Origin: Akkermansia muciniphila
Lineage (GTDB): Bacteria > Verrucomicrobiota > Verrucomicrobiia > Verrucomicrobiales > DEV007
DNA: 46,995 nucleotides
Reading direction: 5' to 3'
NCBI GenBank assembly: GCA_945883495.1
Contig: CAMCXS010000045.1
Span: 1 to 46,995 of the forward strand
In this document: in pieces, positions 25,922-38,194 of the stretch
Position numbering within the stretch: the stretch's first letter is position 1
How the letters are laid out: the number at the start of each line of letters is the position of its first letter
Translations under genes and position numbers: made by a program
The notes under the pieces: generated by a model
The model's database searches: none
Told to the model about the DNA's origin: nothing
The model's input: only the letters and a program-made list of their open reading frames with translations

Positions 25922-25966
25922 AAGCCAACTGTCGGATTTGAACCGACGACCGGCCGATTACAAATC
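25922..25966 (-). repeat. Left attachment site (displaced 3' end of tRNA-Thr)
   Basis: This 45-bp sequence is identical to 38122-38166. On the minus strand it is the anticodon-loop-to-3'-end half of tRNA-Thr(UGU). Beyond it the sequence departs from the tRNA (TACCG instead of GGCTG), so this copy is not a functional tRNA. It is the scar left by integration. Confidence 0.92.
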
Positions 25967-26198
25967 TACCGTGCGGACCCGTTTGCCCGAAGAAATGGGG
26001 CGATATCTCACTGAAAATAGCCTTAATTTATAGCCTTTCGGGGACCGATAGCGGGACTGAAACGGGACTGGCTTCCAAGGAAGAGAGCGAAAGCAGTAAT
26101 GGACATGCGGGGAGAGAGCCAAATCAGGCTTTTCGGGGCGGACTGATCAGGATTAGCAGGCGCTCCAGCGCCCAAGTTCGATCCGAAGGGGGAATTAT

Positions 26199-26400
26199 TA
26201 AGATCCGCTGATTTCTCAGATCTGAGGCATTTCTCAGTTGCGCCCGTGCAAAGCGGTGTCAGGTTGATCACTACCCTATGATCGACACCACCTAGCAACC
26301 GTACAAGCGGATAGCCGACCCCGGCCAGGGTCGGCTGATCCAAGATAGCCCGTAACAGCAAGCTTCCCTCGAGAGTTACTCAGAAGGGCGTTGCCCTTCT
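26199..26400. ncRNA. Candidate structured RNA: cluster of hairpins at the left end
   Basis: Between the left att and the first gene there is no convincing reading frame, but several inverted repeats sit in a row. They are CTGA-TTTC-TCAG (near 26210), GGTGTC..GATCA/TGATC..GACACC with a 5-base bulge (26255-26289), AGCCGACCC/GGGTCGGCT (26313-26336, 9 bp perfect) and AGAAGGGC/GCCCTTCT (26382-26400, 8 bp perfect, 3-base loop, then TT). This density suggests a folded transcript or protein-binding sites. The strand and function are unknown. Confidence 0.35.
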
Positions 26401-26502
26401 TTGTGCTCTTAAGTTGCCCGAGTGTTACGGATTTGTGAAACAAAGTCAAGCTGAAATTCAAGATGAACGCACGGTCAGCGCGCGTTCCAACCCGTAACAA
26501 CA

Positions 26503-26766
26503 ATGGTATACCTCATTACTTACGACCTAAACAGAGAGATTAATAGACCGCCGATTGTAACCATAATCAAGGAATTGGGCGCATGGGCCTGCTTGTCAGA
26601 GTCATCCTACGCCATTGAAACCGCATCTACGGTTACGGCGATTTACAGAGCGCTAGCTCCGTTGCTTGATAGCAATGACAGTCTATTAGTGGTCACCCTG
26701 AGAGCACCATGGACAGGCCACGCGCCTGCCGAGGTGATGGAATGGCTCCACGAACGACTGGCGTAA
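26503..26766 (+). CDS. Small Cas2-like (ferredoxin-fold) protein
   Basis: This 87-residue protein has the layout of Cas2/VapD/'SinR-like' small proteins. It begins MVYLITYDLNRE with the conserved strand and YDL motif, continues IVTIIKELGAWACLSESSYAIET, and ends in DSNDSLLVVTL, the fourth strand of such folds. The aspartate in YDL corresponds to the residue at the Cas2 dimer metal site. No cas1 or CRISPR repeats are present, so it is an orphan. Related orphans are suspected RNases or toxins; that role here is inference. A hairpin (GTTCCGC/GCGGAAC, 26797-26828) follows the stop, without a T-run. Confidence 0.6.
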   Translation: MVYLITYDLNREINRPPIVTIIKELGAWACLSESSYAIETASTVTAIYRALAPLLDSNDSLLVVTLRAPWTGHAPAEVMEWLHERLA

Positions 26767-26909
26767 CGTCGGCTCCACATTTAATCAGCTGAGTGAGTTC
26801 CGCTTCCCTCTCGCGGGGGGGGCGGAACAGTTCTGCTTCTGTCAGTATATGACGACCTCAAAGAAGTTCTCACAGTTGACGGAGGGGATGGCGGGCGGTA
26901 GAGCCTGAC

Positions 26910-27134
26910 ATGACCATAGTCCTCCATATTGCTCAGGGGCTCTTTGCGGTGATGGGCCTTGGCCTTCTCTCCGGCTTCACAAGCTCCAAAAACATAGGTG
27001 TCCTTTTAGCCGGACTCACCTACGGAGGTGGAGCATACACATCCTTTGCCATGGATTCATGGTGGCCCCTACTGGCCGCATTTGTCGGAACGTGGCTTCT
27101 ACGGCTTGTGGGCTTAGACCCAAGTCCGAATTGA
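26910..27134 (+). CDS. Small two-helix membrane protein
   Basis: This 74-residue protein is almost wholly hydrophobic. Two helices (about 5-25 and 45-68) are joined by a glycine-rich turn (LAGLTYGGGAYTSF). I recognise no family. It lies in the element between the Cas2-like gene and the convergent DUF2637-like gene. The start has GGCGGTAGAG a few bases upstream. Small membrane proteins of this kind in mobile elements can be toxins, holin-like or exclusion factors; nothing here decides which. Confidence 0.5.
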   Translation: MTIVLHIAQGLFAVMGLGLLSGFTSSKNIGVLLAGLTYGGGAYTSFAMDSWWPLLAAFVGTWLLRLVGLDPSPN

Positions 27135-27170
27135 AACCACCGTAGCGACTTGTTAGTTTTGTCGGGGAGT

Positions 27171-27782
27171 TCAAGCGACGCCTCGTGCAAGATGGCGGAA
27201 ATAGGTTCTCAGCGGGACGCCCTTACGCTTGGCAATCTGCGCGTGCGTGATGGGTTGCCCGTTTTCATCAATGGCAGTCTTTACGCCCGGCCGCCTTCCG
27301 CGCCGCTTTGGTTGCGCCGTCCGCTCCGATTCGGTGCCATCGGTGGCGGGTGTCGTGCGCTGCCGTGGCGACGGTGCGGAAATGCCAGCTTCGCGAGAGT
27401 GCCGGACTTCAGCCAAGAGCACCTCGAGGACTACGAAGGACACGACGGGAGGCATGGCGTGCATGAAGTATTTCAGAACGTGTGCCGCATCCGGTCCACT
27501 CCACACGTGCATCACATTGAGCATCGCGGAAATGCCAGTGAATCCGAGGACGAGAGCGGAATAATGGGTGCCGTCCCTGCCAGCGATGGACGCATTGAAT
27601 GCCGCAACGGCGAGAGCGATTGCCCCCGCATCTACAAGCAGCGGGAACAAGGCCGGAAATGCCATTGCGTTTTCCTCGGCAAGCTCCTTCAATGCCGCGA
27701 ACGACATCACGAAGGCCGCCGCGTTGATGACGGCGAGAGCAGCGTAGAGAACAACGGTTGCGGAGAGGCGAGGCATTTTCAT
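27171..27782 (-). CDS. DUF2637-like membrane protein with basic HTH-like tail
   Basis: This 203-residue protein has four hydrophobic helices in the first 130 residues. They carry the pattern LVDAGAIALAVAAF and MLNVMHVWSG, which I associate with DUF2637 (SpdA-like plasmid transfer/spread proteins). A flexible linker follows, then a basic KRRGRRPG segment and a final ITHAQIAKRKGVPLRTYF stretch that reads like a helix-turn-helix. A membrane-anchored DNA-binding role is therefore possible. DUF2637 proteins are best known from actinobacterial plasmids, so its presence here hints at plasmid ancestry. It is divergent from the RHH gene. Confidence 0.6.
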   Translation of the reverse strand: MKMPRLSATVVLYAALAVINAAAFVMSFAALKELAEENAMAFPALFPLLVDAGAIALAVAAFNASIAGRDGTHYSALVLGFTGISAMLNVMHVWSGPDAAHVLKYFMHAMPPVVSFVVLEVLLAEVRHSREAGISAPSPRQRTTPATDGTESERTAQPKRRGRRPGVKTAIDENGQPITHAQIAKRKGVPLRTYFRHLARGVA

Positions 27783-27882
27783 CGTATTGGAATAAAGTAT
27801 GAATCTAAATGTCAGCCGTCAAAGGAATTTAGTATGCATCGAATTCGCTGGCAGATTCTCACGGATGAGCTACAATTCCGCG

Positions 27883-28077
27883 ATGAGTGAAAATGCCAGC
27901 AAGCGCCGCCGGGGAGCACCGTTGCACGGCGAGGAAAAGAAGGTGCGGAAGACCGTCACCATTGATCCGAAGGTATGGGATGCCGCCGCCGAAACTGCCG
28001 CCCGCCGTGAAGAGTCCGTCAGCGGAGTGGTTGAAGACTCGTTGCGTCGCTACGTGAAAAAGAACGCTGGAGAGTAA
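27883..28077 (+). CDS. Small ribbon-helix-helix-like DNA-binding protein
   Basis: This 64-residue basic protein has a beta-strand and two-helix pattern: KKVRKTVTIDPKVWDAAAET followed by AARREESVSGVVEDSLRRYV. This is the usual shape of RHH repressors and antitoxins. The ATG at 27883 (MSENASKRRRG) is chosen over upstream starts because the preceding residues are not conserved-looking. It is convergent with the VRR-NUC gene and may repress the element's operon or the neighbouring DUF2637 gene. Confidence 0.65.
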   Translation: MSENASKRRRGAPLHGEEKKVRKTVTIDPKVWDAAAETAARREESVSGVVEDSLRRYVKKNAGE

Positions 28078-28176
28078 ATGCCAGCAAACGCGCAAGGATG
28101 CCGTTTTTAGGCAGGGATCGCCTCTTCCGCTGCCGTGTCTCCCGGCGCCATGATTATCGCCGCGTGACGTCGCCTC

Positions 28177-28608
28177 TCAAGCGGGAAGTGCCAGCTCCAA
28201 CCACTCGCCCGGACTTCCGGCCAGGTATTCCAAGATGACATCCCGCGCCGCCTCCCATCCCGCGCAAACTTCCGCACGGTAGCCTTGCCCACGTAAGCGT
28301 GAGATCCATTCCGCCTGTTCCCGAGAGATCCGGCCGCCGTCTCTCCGTTTCAGTTCGATGAAGAGCCCACCGAATCCCCCGCCTGGAACCAGCAACGCCA
28401 AGTCAGGCAAACCAGGCGCCAAGCCTTGAGCCATCGCCGCGCCAGCGCTTCCACGTCGCACCGCGCCGTTTGGAATCATGACGAGCATCCGCAACCGGGG
28501 TTCAGAGACGGAAGCCAGCCGCGCCCATTGGATCAGAGTCCTTTGTTCGTGCGCTTCGCTTGCAACGGGAAGGCTTGGCGCTTTCGCTCGTTTGGTCGCC
28601 ATCTTCAT
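28177..28608 (-). CDS. VRR-NUC domain nuclease
   Basis: This 143-residue protein matches the PD-(D/E)XK-type VRR-NUC fold. It shows MLVMIPNGAVRR, then GLAPGLPDLALLVPGG (catalytic Asp), GLFIELKRRDGG (E-x-K) and ISREQAEWISRLRGQGYRAE with a closing VCAGWEAARDVI. Stand-alone VRR-NUC proteins are common in phages and satellites, where they may act in DNA processing or packaging. The ATG abuts the stop of the preceding terminase-like gene (TGA then ATG), so it is the last gene of the replication operon. Confidence 0.85.
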   Translation of the reverse strand: MKMATKRAKAPSLPVASEAHEQRTLIQWARLASVSEPRLRMLVMIPNGAVRRGSAGAAMAQGLAPGLPDLALLVPGGGFGGLFIELKRRDGGRISREQAEWISRLRGQGYRAEVCAGWEAARDVILEYLAGSPGEWLELALPA

Positions 28609-29265
28609 TCAATCCTTCGTGGTGTCTCGAAGACTTGCCCGAATCTTTGCTACCGTGGATTCCGACAAGACCTTGAGCTTGATCGGTTCGGCATAGTTGA
28701 GCATTTCCGACAGCTCCCGCAGTGCGCCCAGTTTGTTCACGGTGGAGACTTCGACCGTGACCACTTCGTCACCGGCTTTGGTGTAGGTGGTCTTGCGCTT
28801 GTAGCTCTGGCAAACCGCGCCCGCTCGGATCTTGTCCGCTTCGCTGGCGTCCGGGTCTTCGAGAATCTCCATGATCTCTTTCGCCCCCATGAACACCACG
28901 CCTTGCAACCAAGCGATCGTGTTCTCTCGCGACAGGACCGCAGCGTCCAGCAACGAAAGCCGCTCGTTGAACTTCGCTTGCCATTCACGCAAGGCATCCT
29001 CTCCGCCGTTCGGTCCAGATTTCCGTTCTTCCAGTTCGCGCAAGTAGGCTTGCACGGCTTTGCCCTTCCAGGACCGCGCCGCGATTGCCCCCATGCCGGG
29101 AGTCTTTGGCTTTCCGGTTGCTTTCGCCCAAGCGTCAAGCTTCGTCATTCCGCTTAGATGCAGCTCGACGAATTGCCGCAAGTGTGGTTTTAGGTCATTT
29201 CGCCTGCCTGTCCGGCTGGCGCCACGCCCCGTATTGTTGTCGGTTTCAGGTTCGTTTGGCTTCAT
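28609..29265 (-). CDS. Terminase small-subunit-like protein
   Basis: This 218-residue protein has an N-terminal helix-turn-helix pattern, LKPHLRQFVELHLSGMTKLD then a region ending SWKGKAVQAYL, similar to the DNA-recognition part of phage small terminases. A central helical stretch follows, then STVNKLGALRELSEMLNYAE, which resembles the KLKALELLGKHLG end of those proteins. Small terminases choose the DNA to be packaged. No large terminase is encoded in the element, as expected for a satellite that redirects a helper. The ATG at 29265 is chosen because its context repeats that of the preceding gene. Assignment by resemblance only. Confidence 0.5.
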   Translation of the reverse strand: MKPNEPETDNNTGRGASRTGRRNDLKPHLRQFVELHLSGMTKLDAWAKATGKPKTPGMGAIAARSWKGKAVQAYLRELEERKSGPNGGEDALREWQAKFNERLSLLDAAVLSRENTIAWLQGVVFMGAKEIMEILEDPDASEADKIRAGAVCQSYKRKTTYTKAGDEVVTVEVSTVNKLGALRELSEMLNYAEPIKLKVLSESTVAKIRASLRDTTKD

Positions 29266-29279
29266 GGTTTCAGGTTCAC

Positions 29280-29576
29280 TCAACTCAATCCTTCGCATGG
29301 TCCGGCCGCAATTTGCATAGTGACAAACAGGTTATGCCAACCGGCCAGGGATGCGTATTGCGCCGCTGCGATTAAATGTTCTCGCTCGGTTCCAGATCTC
29401 GCCACGACCGAGAGTTCTCTCGACCTCATAACCGCAGACTCCCCACCTCTCGCGAGAATGCGAGGCTCCGCCGTATCCGGGTCTTTCTGAATCGTCGCCA
29501 GCATGAGGCGGATTAGTTTTTCGTCCGGGTCCATCGGTTTGCTGTCTTGTGTTGCGCTGGGCTCGTTTGTCTTCAT
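29280..29576 (-). CDS. Small unknown protein in replication operon
   Basis: This 98-residue protein is of no family I recognise. It is mostly helical by composition, with an acidic start (PMDPDEKLIRLMLATIQKD) and a hydrophobic C-terminal helix (AAQYASLAGWHNLFVTMQIA). It lies 9 bp after the helicase gene and 14 bp before the terminase-like gene. Its start region shares the string TGAAACCATGAAG with the latter, so both are probably translated from one message in the same way. Confidence 0.6.
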   Translation of the reverse strand: MKTNEPSATQDSKPMDPDEKLIRLMLATIQKDPDTAEPRILARGGESAVMRSRELSVVARSGTEREHLIAAAQYASLAGWHNLFVTMQIAAGPCEGLS

Positions 29577-29585
29577 GGTTTCAAA

Positions 29586-30908
29586 TCACTCGTAAGTTGC
29601 CGGAAGGAATCGCAGGAATTGCCCTTGGAAGCGCAGCTTGATGTATCCGTTCGGCCTGCCCGACCGGTTTTTATCTATCACCAGACCGATGTCGCGGCAC
29701 TTCTCATCACGCGATTGCACCGCGAAGGTGTCGTCATCTTGATCGGCCTTCGGGTTGCCGTGGTCGCCAAGGAGTCCGATAAACCACGCGTCTTGCTCGA
29801 TCTGCCCGCAGTCGCGAAGGTGCTTCCGGCTGAGACTGCCCGCCGGTTCCGACTCCGCCTCTCGGTTCAATTGAGCCAAGGCAATCACGGGGATGTTGTT
29901 TTCCTTGGCGATCCGAACGAGCATGTTCGACGCGTTGCCGATGCGAAGTTGAGGGTTGCGCTCTTCTTCCGAGGATGAGGCTGGAACCAACTGGATGTAG
30001 TCCAGGCAGAAGAGCTTGATTTTCTTTTGCCGAACCATCTTGCGCACCATCCGCTCGATCTGCGGGACCTTTAAGAACCGGTCGTCGCAGTGAATTGGAA
30101 GACTCACCAGCTCTTTCATGCCTCGCTGAATCTTGTTGAAGTGCCAATCGGTCAGAGCGCCGGATTGCATGGCGCCGAAATCGACTTGTTGCTGAGTCGA
30201 AATCAGGGCTTCGAATGTCTGCGCCGCGCTCATCTCCAGGTTTAGGAAGTATGACCCGAAACCATGTGACGCCGCCTTCAGCATGATCTGGCGCACTAGA
30301 GAAGTCTTACCCATCCCTGGCCTCGCCCCGAAGACATACACGCGCCCCGGTTGAAACCCGTTCGTTGCGTCGTCCAGGTCTTTGATTCCTGAAGGGATTC
30401 CCGGATAAACCCCACTAGACTTCGCCTGCACGCGAGTTTCCAGCTCAGCCAAGACGGCGTGTGCTGCCTCGTTCATGGACGGGACTCCATTGGAGTCTCC
30501 CAAGTCGTCCGAAATGCCCATCACGTCCTTCTCAATCAGGACATTCAACTCGTCCGGGTCAGTCGTCGCGACCTTGGCGAGAATCGAGGAAGCAAACGCT
30601 TGCAGGCGACGTTTCAGTCTCGCCTTACGGCACTCCTCCAGATAGTAGCCCGAAGACGCGGCCGATGGGGCGAAGCGGTAAACCTCCACCATGAACGCTG
30701 GTGGGACGCGGTCGAGCTTCCCTTGTCCCTTCAGCCATGCGGCCAATTCTGCCGGGTTTGTGCGCCCCGAAATCCGGGAAGCTTCCAGCAGCTCCCAAAG
30801 AGCGGAATCCGTGAACCAGTCCGGGCCAATTTCGGGGATGTCTGCCCCTTGCAGGACACACGAAACCAACCCGCGCTCTGCTTTATCGTTTTCGAGTAAC
30901 TCACTCAT
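29586..30908 (-). CDS. DnaB-family replicative helicase
   Basis: This 440-residue protein has an N-terminal DnaB domain (about 1-110, starting SELLENDKAERGLVSCVL). The RecA-like motor follows, with Walker A GARPGMGKTS (K201), Walker B IKLFCLDYIQL, and H4-type motif IALAQLNREAE followed by GSLSRKHLRDCGQIEQDA. The usual C-terminal DKNRSG and NGYIKLRF motifs close it. It would unwind the element's origin after loading by the upstream initiator. Its start overlaps the initiator stop as ATGA, so the two are translationally coupled. It is slightly short compared with chromosomal DnaB, as in many phage versions. Confidence 0.92.
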   Translation of the reverse strand: MSELLENDKAERGLVSCVLQGADIPEIGPDWFTDSALWELLEASRISGRTNPAELAAWLKGQGKLDRVPPAFMVEVYRFAPSAASSGYYLEECRKARLKRRLQAFASSILAKVATTDPDELNVLIEKDVMGISDDLGDSNGVPSMNEAAHAVLAELETRVQAKSSGVYPGIPSGIKDLDDATNGFQPGRVYVFGARPGMGKTSLVRQIMLKAASHGFGSYFLNLEMSAAQTFEALISTQQQVDFGAMQSGALTDWHFNKIQRGMKELVSLPIHCDDRFLKVPQIERMVRKMVRQKKIKLFCLDYIQLVPASSSEEERNPQLRIGNASNMLVRIAKENNIPVIALAQLNREAESEPAGSLSRKHLRDCGQIEQDAWFIGLLGDHGNPKADQDDDTFAVQSRDEKCRDIGLVIDKNRSGRPNGYIKLRFQGQFLRFLPATYE

Positions 30909-32035
30909 GCGGGCAAGCCATCGTTAAGTTCAGCCTCGCTCGGAAGCTGGGCCTTTAGTTCCTCACACTTGCGCTTAAGCTCGCCAAGCTTAACCTCAGC
31001 ATCCGGGAGCAAGACTTTCCCGTCACCGCTCCAATCGTAGTTCGCTTTGTTGTCCTTGATCGCCTTCGCCTGGCCCCTTAGCGCTTTTATATCCTTCTCG
31101 ATCTGCCACGGCTCCATCGGTCGCCTAGGCTTGGCATCCGACGAAGTCTTCACGGGCGTCTCGTGGCGTTGCGCTCGCTCCAAGTTCTGCGCCTTCAGGA
31201 GTTGCTGACCTTGCCCACGAAGGAACGCGAGGAACTCCCGGAGGAAACTACGAGGGTTTGCCTCACGGTGCCGGGCGATCAGTTCAACGTCGGGGTCGCT
31301 CAGCTTGGTTGCGCTTCCTTCGAACGCCTTGCGGTGTTTGTCCGTAAGTTCGCTTTCAGTGATCGCGAAGAGCCGTTCGGCGATCTTCACGAGAAGCGGA
31401 TCATTCACCGGTTGACGTTCGCCCTCGCCCTTCGCTTCCGATTTCGGGCGAGTTTCCTCTTCCTCCTCTGAAAAAGATCTACTGGTCAGATACCCCGCAT
31501 TAGCTGCGGGGCCCTCCGCACGAAATGCGGGGCTCTCAGTGTCAAGCCCCGCAGTAGATGCGGGGCTCTCACCATCATGCCCCGCATTTGCTGCGGGGCC
31601 CTCCGTTCCCCGCTTCGCCGCCTTTCGGGCCTTGCGAGCTTCGATCGTCGCCCAGTCGAATTGAAGCTTGTAGACGACAGTCGTTGGATTGCCATCTTCG
31701 CCACGAAGGCGACGAGGTTCCTCCTTGATTGAGCCTGTCCTTCTGTCGATCCGCTGAACTACTTCAGCGTATTTGATTTTGCCGCTTGCACGCAATGCCA
31801 CAAGTGCGCCTTGAACTGCTCGCTCTGATTTCAACCCGGTATCGCTCATAATCGTTGCGACCGATGGCCACGCTTTGAGCGTTTCGCAGTCCGCATAGCG
31901 GGCAAGGCAGACGAGAACTGCCTTTTGCGTCGAGGTGGCCTCTTGCTCACAGGCCCAGTCCAGCAAATTGTGAAGCCTGACTTTACCCGGGCGCAATTGC
32001 TCCGCAGTAGAGGACGATGGTCTTGAAGCGAACAC
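30905..32035 (-). CDS. Replication initiator (HTH_36-like) with origin iterons inside the gene
   Basis: This 376-residue protein has an N-terminal winged helix-turn-helix of the HTH_36 replication-initiator type (RLHNLLDWACEQEATSTQKA, then TLKAWPSVATIMSDTGLKSE and RAVQGALVALRASGKI, about 20-95). A low-complexity linker around residues 145-180 follows, then a helical C-terminal half. The linker coincides with four palindromic DNA repeats (31493-31598). This is the same layout as lambda gene O, where the initiator's coding sequence contains the origin it binds. The helicase gene follows with a 4-bp overlap. The GTG at 32035 is the first start of the frame. Initiator function is inferred from domain, position and iterons. 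Confidence 0.75.
   Translation of the reverse strand: MFASRPSSSTAEQLRPGKVRLHNLLDWACEQEATSTQKAVLVCLARYADCETLKAWPSVATIMSDTGLKSERAVQGALVALRASGKIKYAEVVQRIDRRTGSIKEEPRRLRGEDGNPTTVVYKLQFDWATIEARKARKAAKRGTEGPAANAGHDGESPASTAGLDTESPAFRAEGPAANAGYLTSRSFSEEEEETRPKSEAKGEGERQPVNDPLLVKIAERLFAITESELTDKHRKAFEGSATKLSDPDVELIARHREANPRSFLREFLAFLRGQGQQLLKAQNLERAQRHETPVKTSSDAKPRRPMEPWQIEKDIKALRGQAKAIKDNKANYDWSGDGKVLLPDAEVKLGELKRKCEELKAQLPSEAELNDGLPA
31493..31598. repeat. Four 19-bp palindromic iterons (probable origin)
   Basis: Four copies of CCCCGCA-N5-TGCGGGG lie at 31493-31511, 31514-31532 (left arm CTCCGCA, one mismatch), 31547-31565 and 31580-31598. Starts are 21, 33 and 33 bp apart; the last two intervals are about three helical turns. 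The loops differ (TTAGC, CGAAA, GTAGA, TTTGC), so the arms are what is kept. A more AT-rich, purine-biased stretch follows in the direction of transcription (31440-31490). Confidence 0.7.
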
Positions 32036-32095
32036 GATACGGAGAATGCGCCGGAAATCCTAATTGCAGAAGAGCACCAAAGTTCCGGCGATCAT

Positions 32096-32383
32096 TTAGG
32101 CCGAAGTGATAGAAGCCGGAGGCTTGAGTTCAGACTTGAGAACAAGCTGCGCTTCCCGGGAGGCGGGATCAATCTGGACGACATACCAGCCGTGAGGCTG
32201 ATAGGACTTGGTCGCCAACCATTCGTTGAGCGCCTCGACGGTGAAGAGCCGCTTCCCGGTCTCCGTGATGCGCTCCGGCGTGAGGTGCCCCTGCTTGGAG
32301 GCGATGTGGAGGTATTGGCGGGAAAATCCAAGGATATTCGCCGCTTCAACCATTGATATAAGGTGACTATGTAAGGAGTGCAT
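32096..32383 (-). CDS. AlpA/excisionase-like DNA-binding protein
   Basis: This 95-residue protein has an N-terminal MerR-type helix-turn-helix, ISMVEAANILGFSRQYLHIA then GHLTPERITETGKRLFTVEA and LNEWLATK. This is the pattern of AlpA, HTH_17 and recombination-directionality proteins. A short beta-rich tail follows. As first gene of the element's minus-strand operon, it is placed where satellites carry their master regulator or excisionase. It would act at the initiator promoter or at att. A second ATG ten codons in is possible. Confidence 0.7.
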   Translation of the reverse strand: MHSLHSHLISMVEAANILGFSRQYLHIASKQGHLTPERITETGKRLFTVEALNEWLATKSYQPHGWYVVQIDPASREAQLVLKSELKPPASITSA

Positions 32384-32639
32384 TTTCCGTTATATCGCGA
32401 GGGGACGCTAACATCGGAAGCCTGTCAAAAGAAATTTACTTGAAAAAATATGACCACCGTTCCCCGTCTTTATATTCTCGTAAAATCCATAAATTACACT
32501 GTTGTTTTGTTATGTGATTTGCAGTGCCGATGCGCGAGACGCGCAGCCTTATAGAGCGGACAATTTACGCTTAGTCATGACTCTGGAAGATTCGCCGCTT
32601 GCTTCCCTAAGATGCCGCCCCAATCTTCCGCGCGCGCAA

Positions 32640-33051
32640 ATGGCTCTTTACCCTCGTGTCTCCGGTGCCCGTCAAAATCCAGCCCGTGCAGCTCCGTCCT
32701 GGTTTGCGGGAAATGTACGCGACCGCAATCATGTTCGAAGCGGTTGCAGTCGTCTGGCCGGATCACCTAGCCAAGTGTCCCCGTGTCTTTGCGTCGATCA
32801 CCGCTCAACTCTCCACCCCGGTGCTGACCGTGGAACCGTGCGACGTGAGCGCCGCCGTAGCTCATGCTGCGGAGGAAAGCCGATTGCTCCGAGAGAGAAC
32901 GAAAGCGGGACTGGACCGAGCCAAAGCGGAGGGCGTGAAGATCGGCCGCCCGCGCAAGCTCACCATGGCGCAACGGTTGGCGCCGCGCCTCGCCCGTGCT
33001 GCGGAGGGCATGAGACAGCTTCAAGAAAACCGTTCGGTTTCTTCTCTATAG
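32640..33051 (+). pseudogene. Decayed small serine recombinase (resolvase/invertase)
   Basis: Two frames each hold part of a resolvase. One begins MALYPRVSGARQNP, like the ALYARVS start with the catalytic serine. The other continues VVWPDHLAKCPRVF, which corresponds to the VWKLDRLARSPR helix, and ends with LLRERTKAGLDRAKAEGVKI and GRPRKLT, a textbook resolvase E-helix and linker. The start and the rest are in different frames, and the DRLxR motif is degraded to DHLAK. This is a frameshifted, inactive remnant. The open frame from 32656 may still be translated. Confidence 0.55.
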
Positions 33052-33083
33052 TATGGCGGTCCGTGTGTCAATCGTATGGCATC

Positions 33084-33215
33084 ATGGCATGGTGGGAATT
33101 CGCTTTGGGCGTGGTCGCGTGGCTCGGCGGCGTCGTCGCCATCGGCCGGACTCTCGATGACTTCCGGAGTGATCCGCCCCGGGGAAAGAGGGGACAGGAT
33201 TCACGGCAGGACTAG
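33084..33215 (+). CDS. Possible 43-residue single-helix membrane protein
   Basis: A short frame begins with MAWWEFALGVVAWLGGVVAI, a single hydrophobic helix, and ends in a charged tail. It follows the recombinase remnant. There is no clear ribosome site and it could be chance. Confidence 0.25.
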   Translation: MAWWEFALGVVAWLGGVVAIGRTLDDFRSDPPRGKRGQDSRQD

Positions 33216-33594
33216 GCCAGGTCGCGCGAGGGCGAGAGGAGCCGATGCAGTAGCTCCCCGGGAGTGAGCCCCTACGCTCCACACGCCACGGGGGCGGGAG
33301 GTAGAGAATCCATAATGAGCGCCGCCCGGTTCTGATTTCCCCGAGCGCGAAAGGGCGGAGATATTCAGACCACGCTCACGACATGATCAGGCGACTGCCC
33401 CGCACACGCGAGAGTTGGAGCGTGGTCGCCAGCTCCGCCCGTGTCGGATTCGTCCGCAATGAGGAACGCATCGGCCGGACTTGCGGAGCGTCCTAGAACG
33501 CCTTCCGATTGTGCGAGTGCCGCGTTGAATTCCTTGGGATTGCCGGAGTTCAATGATCAGTTGCGCCTCAAGGGAACAGTGTTAGTGATGAAAT
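33216..33594. other. Intergenic stretch in the element without a supported gene
   Basis: Open frames on both strands overlap here (33365-33553 minus, 33441-33629 plus), but neither has a recognisable motif or ribosome site. I see no clear repeat or hairpin. It may be residual DNA from the decay that broke the adjoining serine recombinase. Confidence 0.35.
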
Positions 33595-33804
33595 ATGAAA
33601 GAATACCTAGTCAAACTCAAAGACACTAAGGGCTTTATCAAGATTAAGGCCGCATCAATGCTGTTGGAGCATCAGGGGGCATCGCTCATTTTTTGGGACA
33701 GAGAGGGGGTCCTTGTTGCGGCATTCCCGAGAGAAAGCATTGCTGGCGCAATCGAAAGGACCCATTGCATTGAAACCCCGATTGAGCTTCCGAAGCTCGA
33801 CTGA
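33595..33804 (+). CDS. Small unknown protein
   Basis: This 69-residue frame is richer in A and T than its neighbours and reads like a compact beta/alpha protein: EYLVKLKDTKGFIKIKAASM, LIFWDREGVLVAAFPRESIA. I recognise no family. It lies in the element and ends four bases before the convergent stop of the second tyrosine recombinase. The composition and tidy spacing suggest a real gene. Confidence 0.5.
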   Translation: MKEYLVKLKDTKGFIKIKAASMLLEHQGASLIFWDREGVLVAAFPRESIAGAIERTHCIETPIELPKLD

Positions 33805-33808
33805 TTGC

Positions 33809-34795
33809 CTACAATCCAAGCGCCCCGGTTTCGTTGTCCTGCCAGACTCCAAAGTCTTTGACGTAGGACCGGAAGACCTCAACGGACTTGTGCCGCGTCG
33901 TTTTCATCATGCCGCGTTCCGTCGCGCCGTTCAGGACGCCTTGAGAGACGAACCCACGGCGGAGACTGTGACCGCTGAAAACATCGGCGAAGCTTTCCCC
34001 GAGGGCGCCACCGATCCGCGCCTTGATCATGAGGCGGATGGCTTCGCCGCTCATTCCCCGGCCGGTCAACTTCCCGCCCTTGCGAAAGCTTTGGAACACG
34101 GGACCGGAGACGATGCCCGAAGCCGACAACCATTCGCGAAGAGCAGCAACGGGGCAGGTGGACGGATTCCGCCCGGCAGCGATGCCGATGGCTTGACCGT
34201 CTCCGGCTTGGTCCGTCTTTGACTTGCGAATGGTGATCTTCACCCCGCGATCTTCAAAGTTCAGATCTTCGACGGTGAGGGCGCCCAGCTCCGAACGGCG
34301 GAACGCTCCCGCGAATCCGATCAGCAGCAACGCCTTGTCGCGCTTGGCTTCCGTGGTCGCCTTCCGGTCCAGTTTCGAGGCGATGGCTTGGAGATGCGCA
34401 GTCAACACGGGTTCCGCCTTTTTCTTCCGCTCCCCACCGCTCGCCTTTTGGTTGGCGATGCCGCGCACGACGGACCGCACCAAGCGAGTCTTGCCCGGGG
34501 CGTCCAGCCCTTGAGCTTCGTGCGCTTGATTGAGGACGGAGAGACGATGACGAACCGTTGCCAGCTTGTAGCCCTCCGCCATGGCGGCCAAGTAATCGGC
34601 GACGGTTTCAGGCGTTGCCGGGAGTGCTTGCCGTTCGTTGAGTCCGCACCACCGGACGAAGTCAGCCCACGCTGCCGCGTAGCTCCGCCGCGTATTGTCT
34701 GCGGTCGCACTCTCCAACGCTGCCGCCGCACTCGCCGAAAGAACGGAGGGGCGGGCAATCTCGGAAGAACCAGAGGCGGCAAGAATAAGCTTCAT
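33809..34795 (-). CDS. Second tyrosine recombinase (XerC/D-like)
   Basis: This 328-residue recombinase has a SAM-like N-terminal DNA-binding domain (ADNTRRSYAAAWADFVRWC). The catalytic set is complete: R166 in AFRRSEL, a beta-hairpin lysine near K193 (IRKSKTD), H276-x-x-R279 in SGHSLRRGF, H302 in TTRHKS and Y311 in FRSYVKD. It could cut and rejoin DNA independently of the tRNA integrase. It is not next to either att end. It may act on another site, resolve replication products, or have come from an earlier inserted element. Confidence 0.85.
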   Translation of the reverse strand: MKLILAASGSSEIARPSVLSASAAAALESATADNTRRSYAAAWADFVRWCGLNERQALPATPETVADYLAAMAEGYKLATVRHRLSVLNQAHEAQGLDAPGKTRLVRSVVRGIANQKASGGERKKKAEPVLTAHLQAIASKLDRKATTEAKRDKALLLIGFAGAFRRSELGALTVEDLNFEDRGVKITIRKSKTDQAGDGQAIGIAAGRNPSTCPVAALREWLSASGIVSGPVFQSFRKGGKLTGRGMSGEAIRLMIKARIGGALGESFADVFSGHSLRRGFVSQGVLNGATERGMMKTTRHKSVEVFRSYVKDFGVWQDNETGALGL

Positions 34796-34965
34796 GCGCC
34801 ATACTTGCCATAATGTTTTATTATCGCAAGTTATTTCGTCGGCGAAAGATTCCTATAAAGGCCAACGAAAGTCTTTGCTGGCTAAGCTTTTCCAGCTACC
34901 AAGGTGTTTGGTTTCGCTGAGTTGCGAGGTGAAGTCGATTGTCGCAATTCCGGAGACTGACAGGC

Positions 34966-35904
34966 ATGAAATCAGAGAAGGGGGTCACACATTGGTCTGA
35001 CGGCGAGAAGACGTGGACTCTGGGGGTCGAAGGATTTATAATCCAAGTTCGGGGTTATATCGTTCAGATAATTCTCGCCGTTCCCCTTATGGGGGCTCCG
35101 TTCTGGTGGAGAGAAGACTGGCCCAAGTCATTTAGCCTGCCCACTTCATCGCTTATACTGCATCTTGCGGTCTGCGCTCTCGTCTTTGGGATTTCTTCGA
35201 CGCTCTACCTTAGGCACAGAGTTAAGCGATCGCTTCGACTCAAGGCTACGCTCCATAATCTGGTTCATCATCTTCGAGACTCCCTCTGTGAGCGCCAACG
35301 CGTGGTCTCGGGAAGACGCGGACGTGAAGGCGCTCAAAGCGCTGCCCACAATCACCGCCACTTGTGTGCAGCAACGAGGGAAGCTTGCAATCACATTGCC
35401 TCGTACTTCTCCGTGCTTACTGGTGATGACTCGGTTGGGTGTGCAATTCGAGTGCTCGAACTAGGCGGCGCCGAAAGCGATGGTCTGGTTTACGTGACGA
35501 TTGGCAGGAGTGACAAATTGAACAGTAGCAGGGGTGAGACCAGTCAGCCGATTTCCCGAGATGCGGGGATTCCAAAGTTTTTCATGGCCGACGATAAATC
35601 AGGTCAAGGAATTCTCTTTTTCGACGATCTGACTAAAGCTACCGCCGTTGGTGCCTACCTCCGAACCAAGAACGACGACCTTTTCGATAAGGATTTTTCG
35701 TCAATGGCTGTAGCGCCTCTCAACGCTCTCAACGGGAAGGGCCGAGAGCTTATTGGGCTCATGTGCGTGACATCGCGCACCGGAAAAGTGTTGCAAGTTC
35801 GTCATATTGACCTATTTAAGTTCTTCGCTGATCTGATGGCGGGTTTTTTCATGGCCTACGATGTGCGCTTCCAAAACAAGGTTAACGGGCGGAGTAGCGC
35901 CTGA
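34966..35904 (+). CDS. Two-helix membrane protein with GAF-like cytoplasmic domain
   Basis: This 312-residue protein has two transmembrane helices (about 24-46 and 62-85). A linker and a C-terminal domain (about 110-300) with a GAF-like pattern follow, ending in DFSSMAVAPLNALNGKGREL and then a GLMCVTS strand and DLFKFFADLMAGFF helix. GAF domains bind small molecules such as nucleotides. A membrane protein with such a sensor in a mobile element could be accessory cargo, for example a defence effector, but nothing proves this. The ATG at 34966 is preferred to a TTG at 34939, and GGAG lies about ten bases upstream. GC content is lower than in host genes. Confidence 0.65.
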   Translation: MKSEKGVTHWSDGEKTWTLGVEGFIIQVRGYIVQIILAVPLMGAPFWWREDWPKSFSLPTSSLILHLAVCALVFGISSTLYLRHRVKRSLRLKATLHNLVHHLRDSLCERQRVVSGRRGREGAQSAAHNHRHLCAATREACNHIASYFSVLTGDDSVGCAIRVLELGGAESDGLVYVTIGRSDKLNSSRGETSQPISRDAGIPKFFMADDKSGQGILFFDDLTKATAVGAYLRTKNDDLFDKDFSSMAVAPLNALNGKGRELIGLMCVTSRTGKVLQVRHIDLFKFFADLMAGFFMAYDVRFQNKVNGRSSA

Positions 35905-35926
35905 ATCCTATTCTGCGGGCGAATTG

Positions 35927-36163
35927 ATGAATAAGATTCTGGAATTTTTTCTAGGTGATCCCTTCAAAAGCGGGGCCAAAGTTCTCACAGATTCGAAAGT
36001 GGTAGAGCTCCTTCGTGCGCCCATTGGACGTTCCTCGGACGAGCAGAGGGGCCGAAAGAACGGTAGTTCGAAGCCTCGTAGAAAGGGCAGAACTGCCAGA
36101 CGAGGAAAGAAAGGGCATTCGAACCGGCCTTATCGGTCCAATCGGCGATTGGCTGCGGCCTAG
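35927..36163 (+). CDS. Small basic protein
   Basis: This 78-residue protein begins MNKILEFFLGDPFKSGAKVL and ends in a strongly basic stretch of K, R and G that probably contacts nucleic acid. The frame is open from 35861, but the ATG at 35927 is preferred because it begins the ordered part. It lies 22 bp after the GAF-like membrane gene and probably shares its message. It overlaps the end of the convergent helical gene by 4 bp. No family recognised. Confidence 0.5.
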   Translation: MNKILEFFLGDPFKSGAKVLTDSKVVELLRAPIGRSSDEQRGRKNGSSKPRRKGRTARRGKKGHSNRPYRSNRRLAAA

Positions 36164-36495
36164 TAGGCTCCGCGATTTTTTGTCATGTTTTCGGCCTCGC
36201 GCCGTCCGACATCAAGGCTCATGCTGCATCTGAGGAGCAGTGCGTGAAGCCTTGACAGATCCTCGCGGGACAGGTTTCGCCTCTTCAGAATTCTGCACAC
36301 TTCATTCAGAGCCTGGCCGATTTTTCCGTTTTCGGGTAGCAACGCCAGCACATCGTTAACCTGCTGCAGGACAGGGTGTCTGTCCCATTCAACCTGACCG
36401 AGGTTTGACCGTGCCGTTGCGATTCTTAGTTTGGCCGTCTCGTAAGCTTCCACAAGAGTCATTTTCAAGCTTATTCCGGCAATGTGGACATTCAA
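36160..36495 (-). CDS. Small helical protein coupled to the integrase
   Basis: This 111-residue, wholly helical frame (TLVEAYETAKLRIATARSNL, IGQALNEVCRILKRRNLSRE) has no family I recognise. A TTG at 36495 overlaps the integrase stop as TTGA, which would couple translation. An ATG at 36462 is the alternative start. Its place behind the integrase suggests a role in recombination control or host takeover, but this is inference. Confidence 0.55.
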   Translation of the reverse strand: MNVHIAGISLKMTLVEAYETAKLRIATARSNLGQVEWDRHPVLQQVNDVLALLPENGKIGQALNEVCRILKRRNLSREDLSRLHALLLRCSMSLDVGRREAENMTKNRGAY

Positions 36496-37922
36496 GTATC
36501 CTTGAAATCAAAAGTCGCTTTAGTGAGAGTCCAGAAGGCCGCCGCCTGCTCCGGCGTTCGAGCGTTCCGGTAGTGCCGGAAGAAGGTCTTCATCGTCGTG
36601 TGGCCCATCTCTGCCCGGACTTCGTCAGCGGTTGAAACCGCCGCCAGGTAGGAGCCGAAAGAGTGGCGGGTGATGTCCAGATTCTCCCCGCCCCAAACGA
36701 CGATCGCGGAACCATCTGCCCGAAGACTGACCTTCGCGCGGCGGTCCCTGATCTGTTGGTCGGTGCCGGGGCAGATTCGCCCTTTGCGTTCGATCCGGTC
36801 ACCTTGCTGGCGAAGGGCATTCAATGCCGCGTGGATGTCCTTGGGCGGTGCTTTCTTCTCCAGGCCGGAGGCTTTCTGCAACCGTGAACGCTTGCCCGGG
36901 GAAAGCTGATTCCACGCGGCCGGACTTGGGTTGCCAGTGATGAAGGCCCGGCACTCGGAATCCTCCATGAGTTCCGCGACGGGGTTGTCAGCGAATCGGA
37001 ACGCTTCAAGCCAGGAGCGCAGGGTTGCGTTCAGAGTCACGTAGCGGTTCACGGCGCCAGTTTTCGCCGCCGTCTTCGAGTCGCGCACCCGGAGAAGTCC
37101 CTGACTCCAAAGAACATCTTCCCAGCAAACCCCGCCTTCTCGGATGAACTCCGCTTCCGGCCGGAGTCCGGCGAAGCAGAGAACCGCGAAGTGCAATGCC
37201 ATTTCGGGATGACCGAGCCGGAAGCAGTTTTCCAGCAGTTCCCGGAGTTGCTCCGGTTCAAACACGGCCACTTGGCGGACGGGGAGTTCCATCGGCCGGA
37301 TCGCTTCGATGGGGTTGCGTGGAACCCGCCCGTTGGCGTGGGCATGGCGATACAGGGACTTCAACCACATTAAGGCCAAGTTGTAGGTCCGGGGCGCCCA
37401 ATCGTTCCGTTGCTTCGCAGCGGCCAACTCTTCGCGCCAGAATTGCGCGTCCATGGTCCCAACTCTCCGGCTCCAAAGTCCCGGGGAAAGCTTGTTCTCA
37501 AGCCATTTCCAATCGTCCGCCGTGGACGCCTTCCGATACTCTTCGAGATAGGCGGACACGAGAGACGTGAGTGTGGGCGACACCATCTCTTGCGTCAAGC
37601 GGCGCTCCAGTTCCTTGCATCCCTCGGCAAGCCCGCTCAGCCCATAGAATTGGAAAAGCTGGTCATAGTGAAGCGCGGTGCGGATAAGCTCCGGCGTTGC
37701 TCCCTTGGGAAGCTTTCCCTTGCGGTCCAAGCTGTTCTTGATTTCGAGGGCGCGTTCGTTCGCTTCTCGCTCGGTTCGGAAGAATTCCTTTCTCCGCTTC
37801 CCGTCCGGGGTGAATTGTCCCGCAAGGTCGATCACCCAGCGATCCCGCGACGGGTAGTAGGTCGGAGTCAAGTCAGCCGGTCTAGGCACCCCGCAGTTTT
37901 CCACAATTCCCCGACTTCGCAA
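36492..37922 (-). CDS. Tyrosine integrase adjacent to tRNA-Thr
   Basis: At 476 residues this is the enzyme expected to insert the element. It has an N-terminal arm-binding region (TYYPSRDRWVIDLAGQF), a core-binding domain (about 115-210) and a catalytic domain with R254 in AGLRPEAEF, K283 in RDSKTAAKTG, R419 in TRHSFGSYLAA, H441 in EMGHTT and the nucleophile Y451 in FRHYRN. The usual histidine three residues before R419 is an aspartate (D416). It is encoded pointing away from the tRNA, about 200 bp from the right att site, which is the normal place for an integrase. Confidence 0.88.
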   Translation of the reverse strand: MRSRGIVENCGVPRPADLTPTYYPSRDRWVIDLAGQFTPDGKRRKEFFRTEREANERALEIKNSLDRKGKLPKGATPELIRTALHYDQLFQFYGLSGLAEGCKELERRLTQEMVSPTLTSLVSAYLEEYRKASTADDWKWLENKLSPGLWSRRVGTMDAQFWREELAAAKQRNDWAPRTYNLALMWLKSLYRHAHANGRVPRNPIEAIRPMELPVRQVAVFEPEQLRELLENCFRLGHPEMALHFAVLCFAGLRPEAEFIREGGVCWEDVLWSQGLLRVRDSKTAAKTGAVNRYVTLNATLRSWLEAFRFADNPVAELMEDSECRAFITGNPSPAAWNQLSPGKRSRLQKASGLEKKAPPKDIHAALNALRQQGDRIERKGRICPGTDQQIRDRRAKVSLRADGSAIVVWGGENLDITRHSFGSYLAAVSTADEVRAEMGHTTMKTFFRHYRNARTPEQAAAFWTLTKATFDFKDT

Positions 37923-38121
37923 AGAACGACTTCGAGTTCACGCTCGTTCTGTCGGGGGAAAGTCTAGCTTTCAGAGTAAATCAGCTGGGGTTCCAGTCCC
38001 GCGAAATTCTAGTAGTTCGGGGACTTTTTGCCGAAACTGGCGGGACTGAAGGGGGACCAAGTGCCCAAGCTGAGGAGAGCTTTTTCTCGCAAATGGCTTT
38101 CCCGCAGCGGGGAAAGTGGTG

Positions 38122-38166
38122 AAGCCAACTGTCGGATTTGAACCGACGACCGGCCGATTACAAATC
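38122..38166 (-). repeat. Right attachment site within tRNA-Thr
   Basis: The second identical copy of the 45-bp repeat covers the tRNA from nucleotide 29 in the anticodon stem to just past its 3' end. The element therefore supplies the 3' half of the functional tRNA. Confidence 0.92.
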
Positions 38167-38194
38167 GGCTGCTCTACCACTGAGCTAAGTTGGC
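38123..38194 (-). tRNA. tRNA-Thr (anticodon UGU)
   Basis: Folding by eye gives a complete cloverleaf of 72 nt. The acceptor is GCCAACT/AGTTGGC and the D arm is GCTC..GAGC. The anticodon stem is GCCGA/TCGGC with loop TTTGTAA (anticodon TGT). The T arm is GTCGG-TTCAAAT-CCGAC and the discriminator is T. No CCA is encoded. It is the integration target of the element to its left. Confidence 0.95.

What the first reader, a model, noticed from the sequence alone, without database searches (positions are those of the whole stretch)
31493..31598. Lambda-like replication origin: four 19-bp palindromic iterons inside the initiator gene
CCCCGCA-N5-TGCGGGG occurs four times in the linker-coding part of the initiator, at 21, 33 and 33 bp spacing, followed by an AT- and purine-richer stretch. 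Lambda gene O likewise holds four dyad iterons and an AT-rich unwinding zone within its own coding sequence, next to the gene providing helicase function. Here the next gene is itself DnaB-like. The coding consequence (repeats of GPAANAG and ESPA) explains the protein's low-complexity linker.
Basis: partly seen in the sequence, partly recalled or inferred. Interest (0 to 1): 0.8.

Follow-up and report, generated by a model that had tools for sequence, protein, structure and literature searches.

The report
Origin iterons inside an initiator gene
A small virus-like element integrated in an uncultured Verrucomicrobia bacterium carries its probable replication start site, four near-identical palindromes, inside the gene for the protein that likely binds it, much as phage lambda does, and comparison with relatives suggests that protein and site change together.

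Summary
Confirmed. Four 19-bp dyads (CCCCGCA-N5-TGCGGGG; three perfect, one with a mismatch), 21, 33 and 33 bp apart, lie in the linker-coding part of a replication-initiator gene (30905-32035, minus). No protein-preserving shuffle of 2000 gives more than two; the exact motif is unique in the 6.46-Mb assembly. Across 12 initiators the recognition-helix core and half-site change together (r 0.63, p about 1e-4). Best reading: a lambda-like origin inside its initiator gene, followed directly by a DnaB-like helicase gene, in a 12.2-kb element in tRNA-Thr (45-bp repeats) that resembles a phage satellite or decayed prophage. Weak points: little AT-richness (60% at best), no loader gene recognised, lambda's dyads are less regular, nothing tested at the bench. 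New member of a known kind; the helix-iteron covariation and a second phased repeat in relatives are the more interesting outcomes.

The parts
31493..31511 (.). iteron 1 on the + strand (last in coding direction), CCCCGCA-N5-TGCGGGG, perfect 7-N5-7 dyad
31514..31532 (.). iteron 2, one mismatch (CTCCGCA-N5-TGCGGGG on +)
31547..31565 (.). iteron 3, perfect dyad
31580..31598 (.). iteron 4, perfect dyad
31440..31489 (-). candidate unwinding zone just 3' of the array on the coding strand (weak: 52% AT over these 50 bases)
   Evidence: function inferred
30905..32035 (-). replication initiator (Rep): N-terminal HTH, linker with the iterons, C-terminal part; the GTG start is the mechanical one
   Evidence: PHROG 1032 2.2e-15 and PHROG 391 'O-like' 5.5e-6; HTH_36 4.3e-5, below Pfam's cut-off
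29586..30908 (-). DnaB-like replicative helicase, directly downstream of Rep
   Evidence: DnaB_C 1.9e-53; PHROG 19 5.4e-60
32096..32383 (-). small HTH protein, excisionase/regulator-like, upstream of Rep
   Evidence: PHROG 66 6.6e-6; HTH_17 1.6e-4, below cut-off
36492..37922 (-). integrase next to tRNA-Thr
   Evidence: PHROG 1 1e-21; no Pfam match over its cut-off
25922..25966 (.). att repeat, left copy (45 bp, exact)
38122..38166 (.). att repeat, right copy, in the 3' part of tRNA-Thr (38123-38194, minus)
   Evidence: similarity of a same-genus genome to the window ends at 38122
28609..29298 (-). small-terminase-like protein (weak match)
   Evidence: PHROG 51 1.4e-4; no terminase match in Pfam or NCBIfam
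28177..28608 (-). VRR-NUC nuclease
   Evidence: VRR_NUC 1e-9

Best explanation
The four dyads are the binding sites (iterons) of the initiator encoded by the gene that contains them, and with the purine- and AT-richer DNA just 3' of them they form the replication origin of a 12.2-kb integrated mobile element. Shown: the array, its place in the linker, its excess over shuffles, dyad arrays with other letters at the same place in several homologous initiators, and the covariation of recognition helix and half-site. Inferred: an HTH dimer binds each dyad, one HTH per arm; four bound dimers form a complex like lambda's O-some after excision; the adjacent DNA opens; the element's own DnaB-like helicase is brought there by the C-terminal part of the initiator (no loader gene was recognised) and replication starts.
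For: Array real and far above shuffles, unique in the assembly. The ORF matches initiator families and lies directly before a DnaB gene. Homologues L005-L007 carry 6-7 dyads CTGTGAA-N5-TTCACAG in the linker, in two reading frames. Arrays of 3 or more with other letters: 10 of 44 ORFs (L105, L109, L114, L117, L118, L119, L125, L141, L147, L150), L018 (same gene as L147) and L022, phages PP9W2 and Pam5 (2 of 6). Of 15 arrays profiled, 12 centre on a base, with mean symmetry 0.18 and 0.37 at 1-2 bases from the centre and 0.81-0.93 at 3-7. Recognition-helix core versus half-site over 12 initiators: r 0.63, p about 1e-4 (the floor of 10,000 permutations), partial r 0.60 given the rest of the HTH. 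CUB19 shares core SERAVQ and half-site CCCCGCA with the window. Arm mismatches are A.C 22, G.U 10, which does not favour an RNA hairpin. Element ends: 45-bp repeat in tRNA-Thr.
Against: No binding or replication data. Unwinding zone weak: 54% AT in the best 50-mer, lambda 74%; in L005-L007 purine but not AT is raised there. 34 of 44 ORFs and 24 of 27 have no array by the filter (many are not clear initiators: the PHROG 391 profile also rings in 10 of 14 control genomes). The three Pseudomonas phage homologues fetched have two dyads only; TC7, Itty13, CUB19 and U2 likewise do not pass. One passing ORF is a regulator, a false positive (L033). Lambda's dyads are symmetric mainly 5-8 bases from the centre, so the 7-N5-7 form is not strictly lambda's. 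In the window, L119 and L150 all dyads are in one frame, so peptide-level duplication may contribute. No P or DnaC homologue was recognised in the ORFs scanned.
Confidence: 0.82

Rival explanations
1. The dyads are operators: the initiator or another regulator binds them to control the rep-dnaB operon, and the origin lies elsewhere, for example in the 77.5% AT stretch near 32469-32521.
For: Dyads suit HTH dimers; the AT-richest DNA of the element is outside rep; in PICIs the origin lies immediately 3' of rep, not in it (PMC6092414, passages).
Against: Four copies more than 400 bases inside the coding region are unusual for an operator; several homologues keep arrays in the linker, where lambda has its origin; no other such cluster in the window.
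Confidence: 0.1
2. The repeats exist for the protein: a Pro/Ala/Gly linker duplicated in 33-bp units, palindromic by accident of codon use.
For: All four in one frame, spacings multiples of 3; L119 and L150 are also in one frame.
Against: None of 2000 shuffles that keep the protein reaches more than 2 dyads; in L005-L007, L105, L117 and L118 the dyads fall in two or three frames.
Confidence: 0.03
3. The dyads act as RNA hairpins in the rep mRNA (attenuation, stability or replication control).
For: Each dyad could fold as a 7-bp stem with a 5-base loop.
Against: Arm mismatches over 15 arrays are A.C 22, G.U 10, other 46: no preference for wobble pairs. No Rfam match at gathering threshold in the element but the tRNA; no terminator-like site at the array.
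Confidence: 0.03

Closest known systems
Bacteriophage lambda ori within gene O
   Same: Four dyad repeats of about 19 bp in the linker-coding middle of the initiator gene, 20-24 bp apart, followed by a purine-rich, AT-rich zone (PMC5043065 and PMC7466680, passages).
   Different: Letters; spacing 21/33/33; the window's dyads are more regular (lambda's are symmetric mainly 5-8 bases from the centre); weak AT zone; a DnaB gene in place of P; sequence link to O only indirect, through PHROG 391.
Initiators of other genomes of the phylum (L005-L007, L105, L117, L118, L125)
   Same: N-terminal HTH and a dyad array in the linker. L125/L168 also has int, a small HTH-like ORF, rep and dnaB in the same order and a near-identical half-site CCCCGAA (the HTH-like and phage genes named by eye, no family search).
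   Different: Letters, copy number, spacing. L168 continues with a tape-measure-like gene. In L166 and L172 the gene after rep looks like an ATPase rather than DnaB (by eye).
Pseudomonas phage PP9W2 and Stenotrophomonas phage CUB19 initiators
   Same: Recognition-helix core SERAV.. and half-sites CCCGGCA and CCCCGCA; in PP9W2 rep is directly followed by an annotated DnaB.
   Different: Hosts; CUB19 has only two dyads, reached by 13 of 40 shuffles.
Phage-inducible chromosomal islands (PICIs)
   Same: About 12 kb, int, small HTH/xis-like gene, rep, weak TerS match, no structural gene recognised in the ORFs scanned, tRNA att repeat.
   Different: DnaB rather than primase; array inside rep rather than 3' of it; no helper or induction known (PMC6092414, passages).

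Membership tests
Lambda-type origin (iterons inside the initiator gene) | Several dyad repeats of about 19 bp in the linker-coding part of the initiator gene | tested here: met
Lambda-type origin (iterons inside the initiator gene) | Initiator related to O-like proteins | tested here: inconclusive
   PHROG 391 'O-like' 5.5e-6 over residues 23-91 and PHROG 1032 2.2e-15. Lambda O matches PHROG 391 over its C-terminal half (140-292), so the link is indirect
Lambda-type origin (iterons inside the initiator gene) | Adjacent strongly AT-rich unwinding zone | tested here: inconclusive
   Richest in the ORF but only 54% AT (50-mer); lambda 74%
Lambda-type origin (iterons inside the initiator gene) | Initiator dimers bind the iterons | not testable with these tools
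   Only indirect: helix and half-site covariation
Lambda-type origin (iterons inside the initiator gene) | P-type helicase loader next to the initiator | tested here: not met
   The next gene is DnaB-like and no loader was recognised. Hence 'works like ori-lambda', not 'a lambdoid replicon'
PICI (phage satellite) | int, xis, replication module and att repeats, no structural or lytic genes, about 15 kb | tested here: inconclusive
   int, rep, dnaB and att found, xis only HTH-like; no structural gene among 16 element ORFs given to Pfam and 10 ORFs given to PHROGs; capsid and portal profiles PF05065 and PF04860 also find nothing in the assembly
PICI (phage satellite) | Origin immediately 3' of the initiator gene | tested here: not met
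   The array lies inside the gene; criterion from PMC6092414 passages. Hence not filed as a PICI
PICI (phage satellite) | Induction and packaging by a helper phage | not testable with these tools
   no data

The most novel reading that the evidence does not exclude
In this broad class of O-like initiators each gene is a self-contained lock and key: the HTH recognition helix and the dyads in the same gene's linker coevolve under a largely shared 7-N5-7 geometry, giving a readable recognition code, and some members add a second, roughly helically phased purine repeat (AACCGGAA or AACAGGAA every 10-13 bp, across reading frames) that marks where the DNA opens or the helicase lands. The window element is a Verrucomicrobiota phage satellite built on this module.
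Probability: 0.3. Interest if true: 0.72.

Novelty: new member of a known kind. Interest (0 to 1): 0.5.

Why it matters
The lambda design is classical, but here it can be compared across many different iteron sequences. Because protein and site lie in one gene they travel together, so databases hold matched pairs. That makes an old question, which residues set the origin specificity of O-type initiators, directly testable, and offers a way to find origins of uncultured phages, satellites and prophages from sequence alone. It also suggests a compact candidate replicon for Verrucomicrobiota, for which I recall few genetic tools.

Tried and rejected
Single-protein searches: Rep in viral contigs, no pattern match; Rep in genome contigs, 56 pattern hits, none a relative; G088 Rep in viral contigs, 4 pattern hits, none a relative. 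DnaB in viral contigs gave one relative (L042); its initiator is of other PHROGs (2509 best) and has two perfect GTAACGC-N5-GCGTTAC dyads 245 bp apart (14 of 200 shuffles also give 2 matches at up to 3 mismatches). I do not count it as an array. The 61 loci mostly hold short stand-alone C-terminal-domain ORFs; 0 of 61 had 3 or more dyads. This is a weak negative control because the ORFs are short. AlphaFold2 of the Rep N-terminus without alignment was useless (mean pLDDT 51.7), so no fold search was made. No PDB chain matched Rep (E up to 1) or lambda O (E up to 0.01) by sequence. The exact dyad in viral contigs gave a capped list of 120 stretches; of the 80 shown, 78 have one dyad and two have two, so single dyads are uninformative. 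A 13-base near-copy of part of an iteron at 31999-32011 was not pursued. L141 passes the filter but was left out of the profiles, because its two longest dyads lie 317 bases apart.

Full report
What is there. Three perfect and one near-perfect 19-bp dyads CCCCGCA-N5-TGCGGGG lie at 31493-31511, 31514-31532, 31547-31565 and 31580-31598, centred at codons 148-177 of a 376-codon ORF on the minus strand (30905-32035). The observed family of 4 compares with at most 2 in 2000 shuffles that keep protein and codon use and in 2000 codon-order shuffles. The assembly (6,456,236 bases, 206 contigs; the window is one whole contig) holds no further exact copy.

What the gene is. The ORF matches PHROG 1032 'replication initiation protein' (2.2e-15, residues 25-278) and PHROG 391 'replication initiation O-like' (5.5e-6, residues 23-91), with HTH matches just below Pfam's cut-offs. 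The next ORF, overlapping by 4 bases, is a DnaB-like helicase (DnaB_C 1.9e-53). No P- or DnaC-like loader was recognised in the ORFs scanned.

The element. A 45-bp exact repeat at 25922-25966 and 38122-38166 lies in the 3' part of tRNA-Thr. Between the copies are an integrase, a second tyrosine recombinase, a small HTH protein, rep, dnaB, a weak TerS match, a VRR-NUC nuclease, a DUF2637 protein and small ORFs. I gave 16 ORFs of the element to Pfam and 10 ORFs to PHROGs; no structural gene was recognised. A same-genus genome (G002) has the identical tRNA-Thr beside the same SNF2-type gene, and its similarity to the window ends at 38122. Its other flank lies on another contig, so this supports the right end only. 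Capsid and portal profiles PF05065 and PF04860 find nothing in the assembly; other capsid types were not tried. The host is of a Verrucomicrobia lineage: the protein at 22106-24055 is 94% and 92% identical to those of two Verrucomicrobia MAGs.

Test on relatives. A search with Rep found 3 further genomes among 386 of the same order (4 including its own), at E 2e-4 to 6e-4. All three carry 6-7 dyads CTGTGAA-N5-TTCACAG in the linker, spaced 55 and 23 bp (one gap of 78), in two reading frames. In phages Rep found 20 records, all Pseudomonas; the three fetched have two dyads GTGCAAC-N-GTTGCAC only, reached by 9, 0 and 9 of 60 synonymous shuffles, so they do not support a four-copy array. With PHROG profiles I scanned 27 ORFs from 29 loci and 44 ORFs from 44 of the 60 loci returned (the 16 left out were repeats of loci already scanned and weak or broken ones). 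These profiles also ring in unrelated control genomes (3 to 10 of 14), so many hits are not initiators. Arrays of 3 or more copies that at most one synonymous shuffle reached: 3 of 27 (L018, L022 and L033, the last a regulator and thus a false positive) and 10 of 44 (L105, L109, L114, L117, L118, L119, L125, L141, L147, L150; L147 is the gene of L018). The other 24 and 34 do not pass. Of 9 phage initiators, lambda included, PP9W2 (5 copies) and Pam5 (3) pass with 0 of 40 shuffles; the rest show two copies. Lambda O, whose four iterons are annotated, scores only 2 in the scan because its dyads are imperfect, so the scan misses true origins.

Geometry. Of 15 arrays profiled, 12 centre on a base; their mean symmetry is 0.18 and 0.37 at 1 and 2 bases from the centre, 0.85, 0.90, 0.90, 0.93 and 0.81 at 3-7, then 0.64 and 0.54. 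Spacers of 0-11 were allowed in the search, so the 5-base gap was not imposed, though arm symmetry was (lambda's centres were taken from its annotation). L022, L109 and L114 have an even centre and differ. Lambda itself is symmetric mainly at 5-8. L005-L007 and L117-L118 are close relatives and not independent.

Protein and site change together. For 12 initiators (window, L006, L105, L117, L119, L125, L147, L150, CUB19, PP9W2, U2, Pam5) I compared the 10-residue core of the presumed recognition helix with the 7-base half-site. The first run used a wrong dyad for U2 and gave r 0.54, p 3e-4. Corrected: r 0.63, p about 1e-4, partial r 0.60 given the rest of the HTH, and 0.02 for the rest given the core. 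Without CUB19 and PP9W2: r 0.50, p 0.003. With lambda added: r 0.65 (n 13); of these, without CUB19 and U2, whose arrays do not pass, r 0.60 (n 11, p 1e-4); without CUB19, U2, PP9W2 and L125, r 0.46 (n 9, p 0.017); eight from the phylum only, r 0.52, p 0.007. Cores were aligned by eye, dyad families were chosen because they exist, the even-centred arrays were left out, and n is small. The window's SERAVQ core and CCCCGCA half-site recur together in Stenotrophomonas phage CUB19, which has two dyads.

Mechanism. I take the array to be the origin core: initiator dimers on the four dyads, opening of the DNA 3' of them on the coding strand, and entry of the element's own DnaB. The opening zone is the weakest part: 54% AT in the best 50-mer (lambda 74%), though the highest in the ORF. 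In 7 of 15 initiators examined (L005-L007, L105, L109, L117, L118; four independent groups) this zone carries 3-4 copies of AACCGGAA, AACAGGAA or AACCCAAA, 10-13 bp apart, in two or three frames, reached by 0-6 of 100 synonymous shuffles. The other 8, the window among them, do not show it; lambda's 3 copies are reached by 30 of 100 and L150's by 89 of 100.

Known background. That lambda's origin lies within O, with 19-bp inverted repeats bound by O dimers and a 40-bp AT-rich zone, is established (PMC5043065, PMC7466680, PMC6022878: passages read). That lambda hybrids with phi80 and 82 define origin specificity I know from a cited title (Furth and Yates 1978, reference list seen) and recall. 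PICI criteria are from PMC6092414 passages. A search for recognition helix, iterons and O protein together returned no paper; other listings. This does not show absence from print.

Verdict. It is a new member of a known kind. On re-checking I found that L141 passes the scan, that the Pseudomonas homologues lack an array and that lambda's dyads fit 7-N5-7 only loosely; I lowered the main confidence from 0.85 to 0.82, raised the operator rival from 0.08 to 0.10 and lowered the novel reading from 0.35 to 0.30.

Noticed in passing
L005, L006, L007, L105, L109, L117, L118 (just 3' of the dyad arrays): Second direct repeat AACCGGAA / AACAGGAA / AACCCAAA, 3-4 copies 10-13 bp apart, in two or three reading frames; 0-6 of 100 synonymous shuffles reach it. 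Absent in the window. Candidate unwinding or helicase-entry element.
   Followed up: partly
window 25922-38166: 12.2-kb tRNA-Thr element with int, second tyrosine recombinase, small HTH gene, rep, dnaB, weak TerS match and VRR-NUC but no structural gene recognised: possible phage satellite or decayed prophage.
   Followed up: partly
L168 (G094:C1:5158000-5173000): Prophage-like region with the same order int, small HTH-like ORF, rep, dnaB and half-site CCCCGAA, followed by a tape-measure-like gene (some genes named by eye).
   Followed up: partly
L042 5015-5998 and L141: Initiators of another type: L042 (PHROG 2509) beside the only DnaB relative found in viral contigs (54% identity) has two perfect GTAACGC-N5-GCGTTAC dyads; L141 begins alike and has GTAACG-type dyads.
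   Followed up: partly
window 27171-27782: DUF2637 membrane protein (4.5e-16), a family I recall from plasmids and integrative elements, inside the element.
   Followed up: no
window 32656-33051: Fragment-like resolvase/invertase match (PHROG 125 3e-8; Pfam below cut-off) between the small HTH gene and the second recombinase.
   Followed up: no
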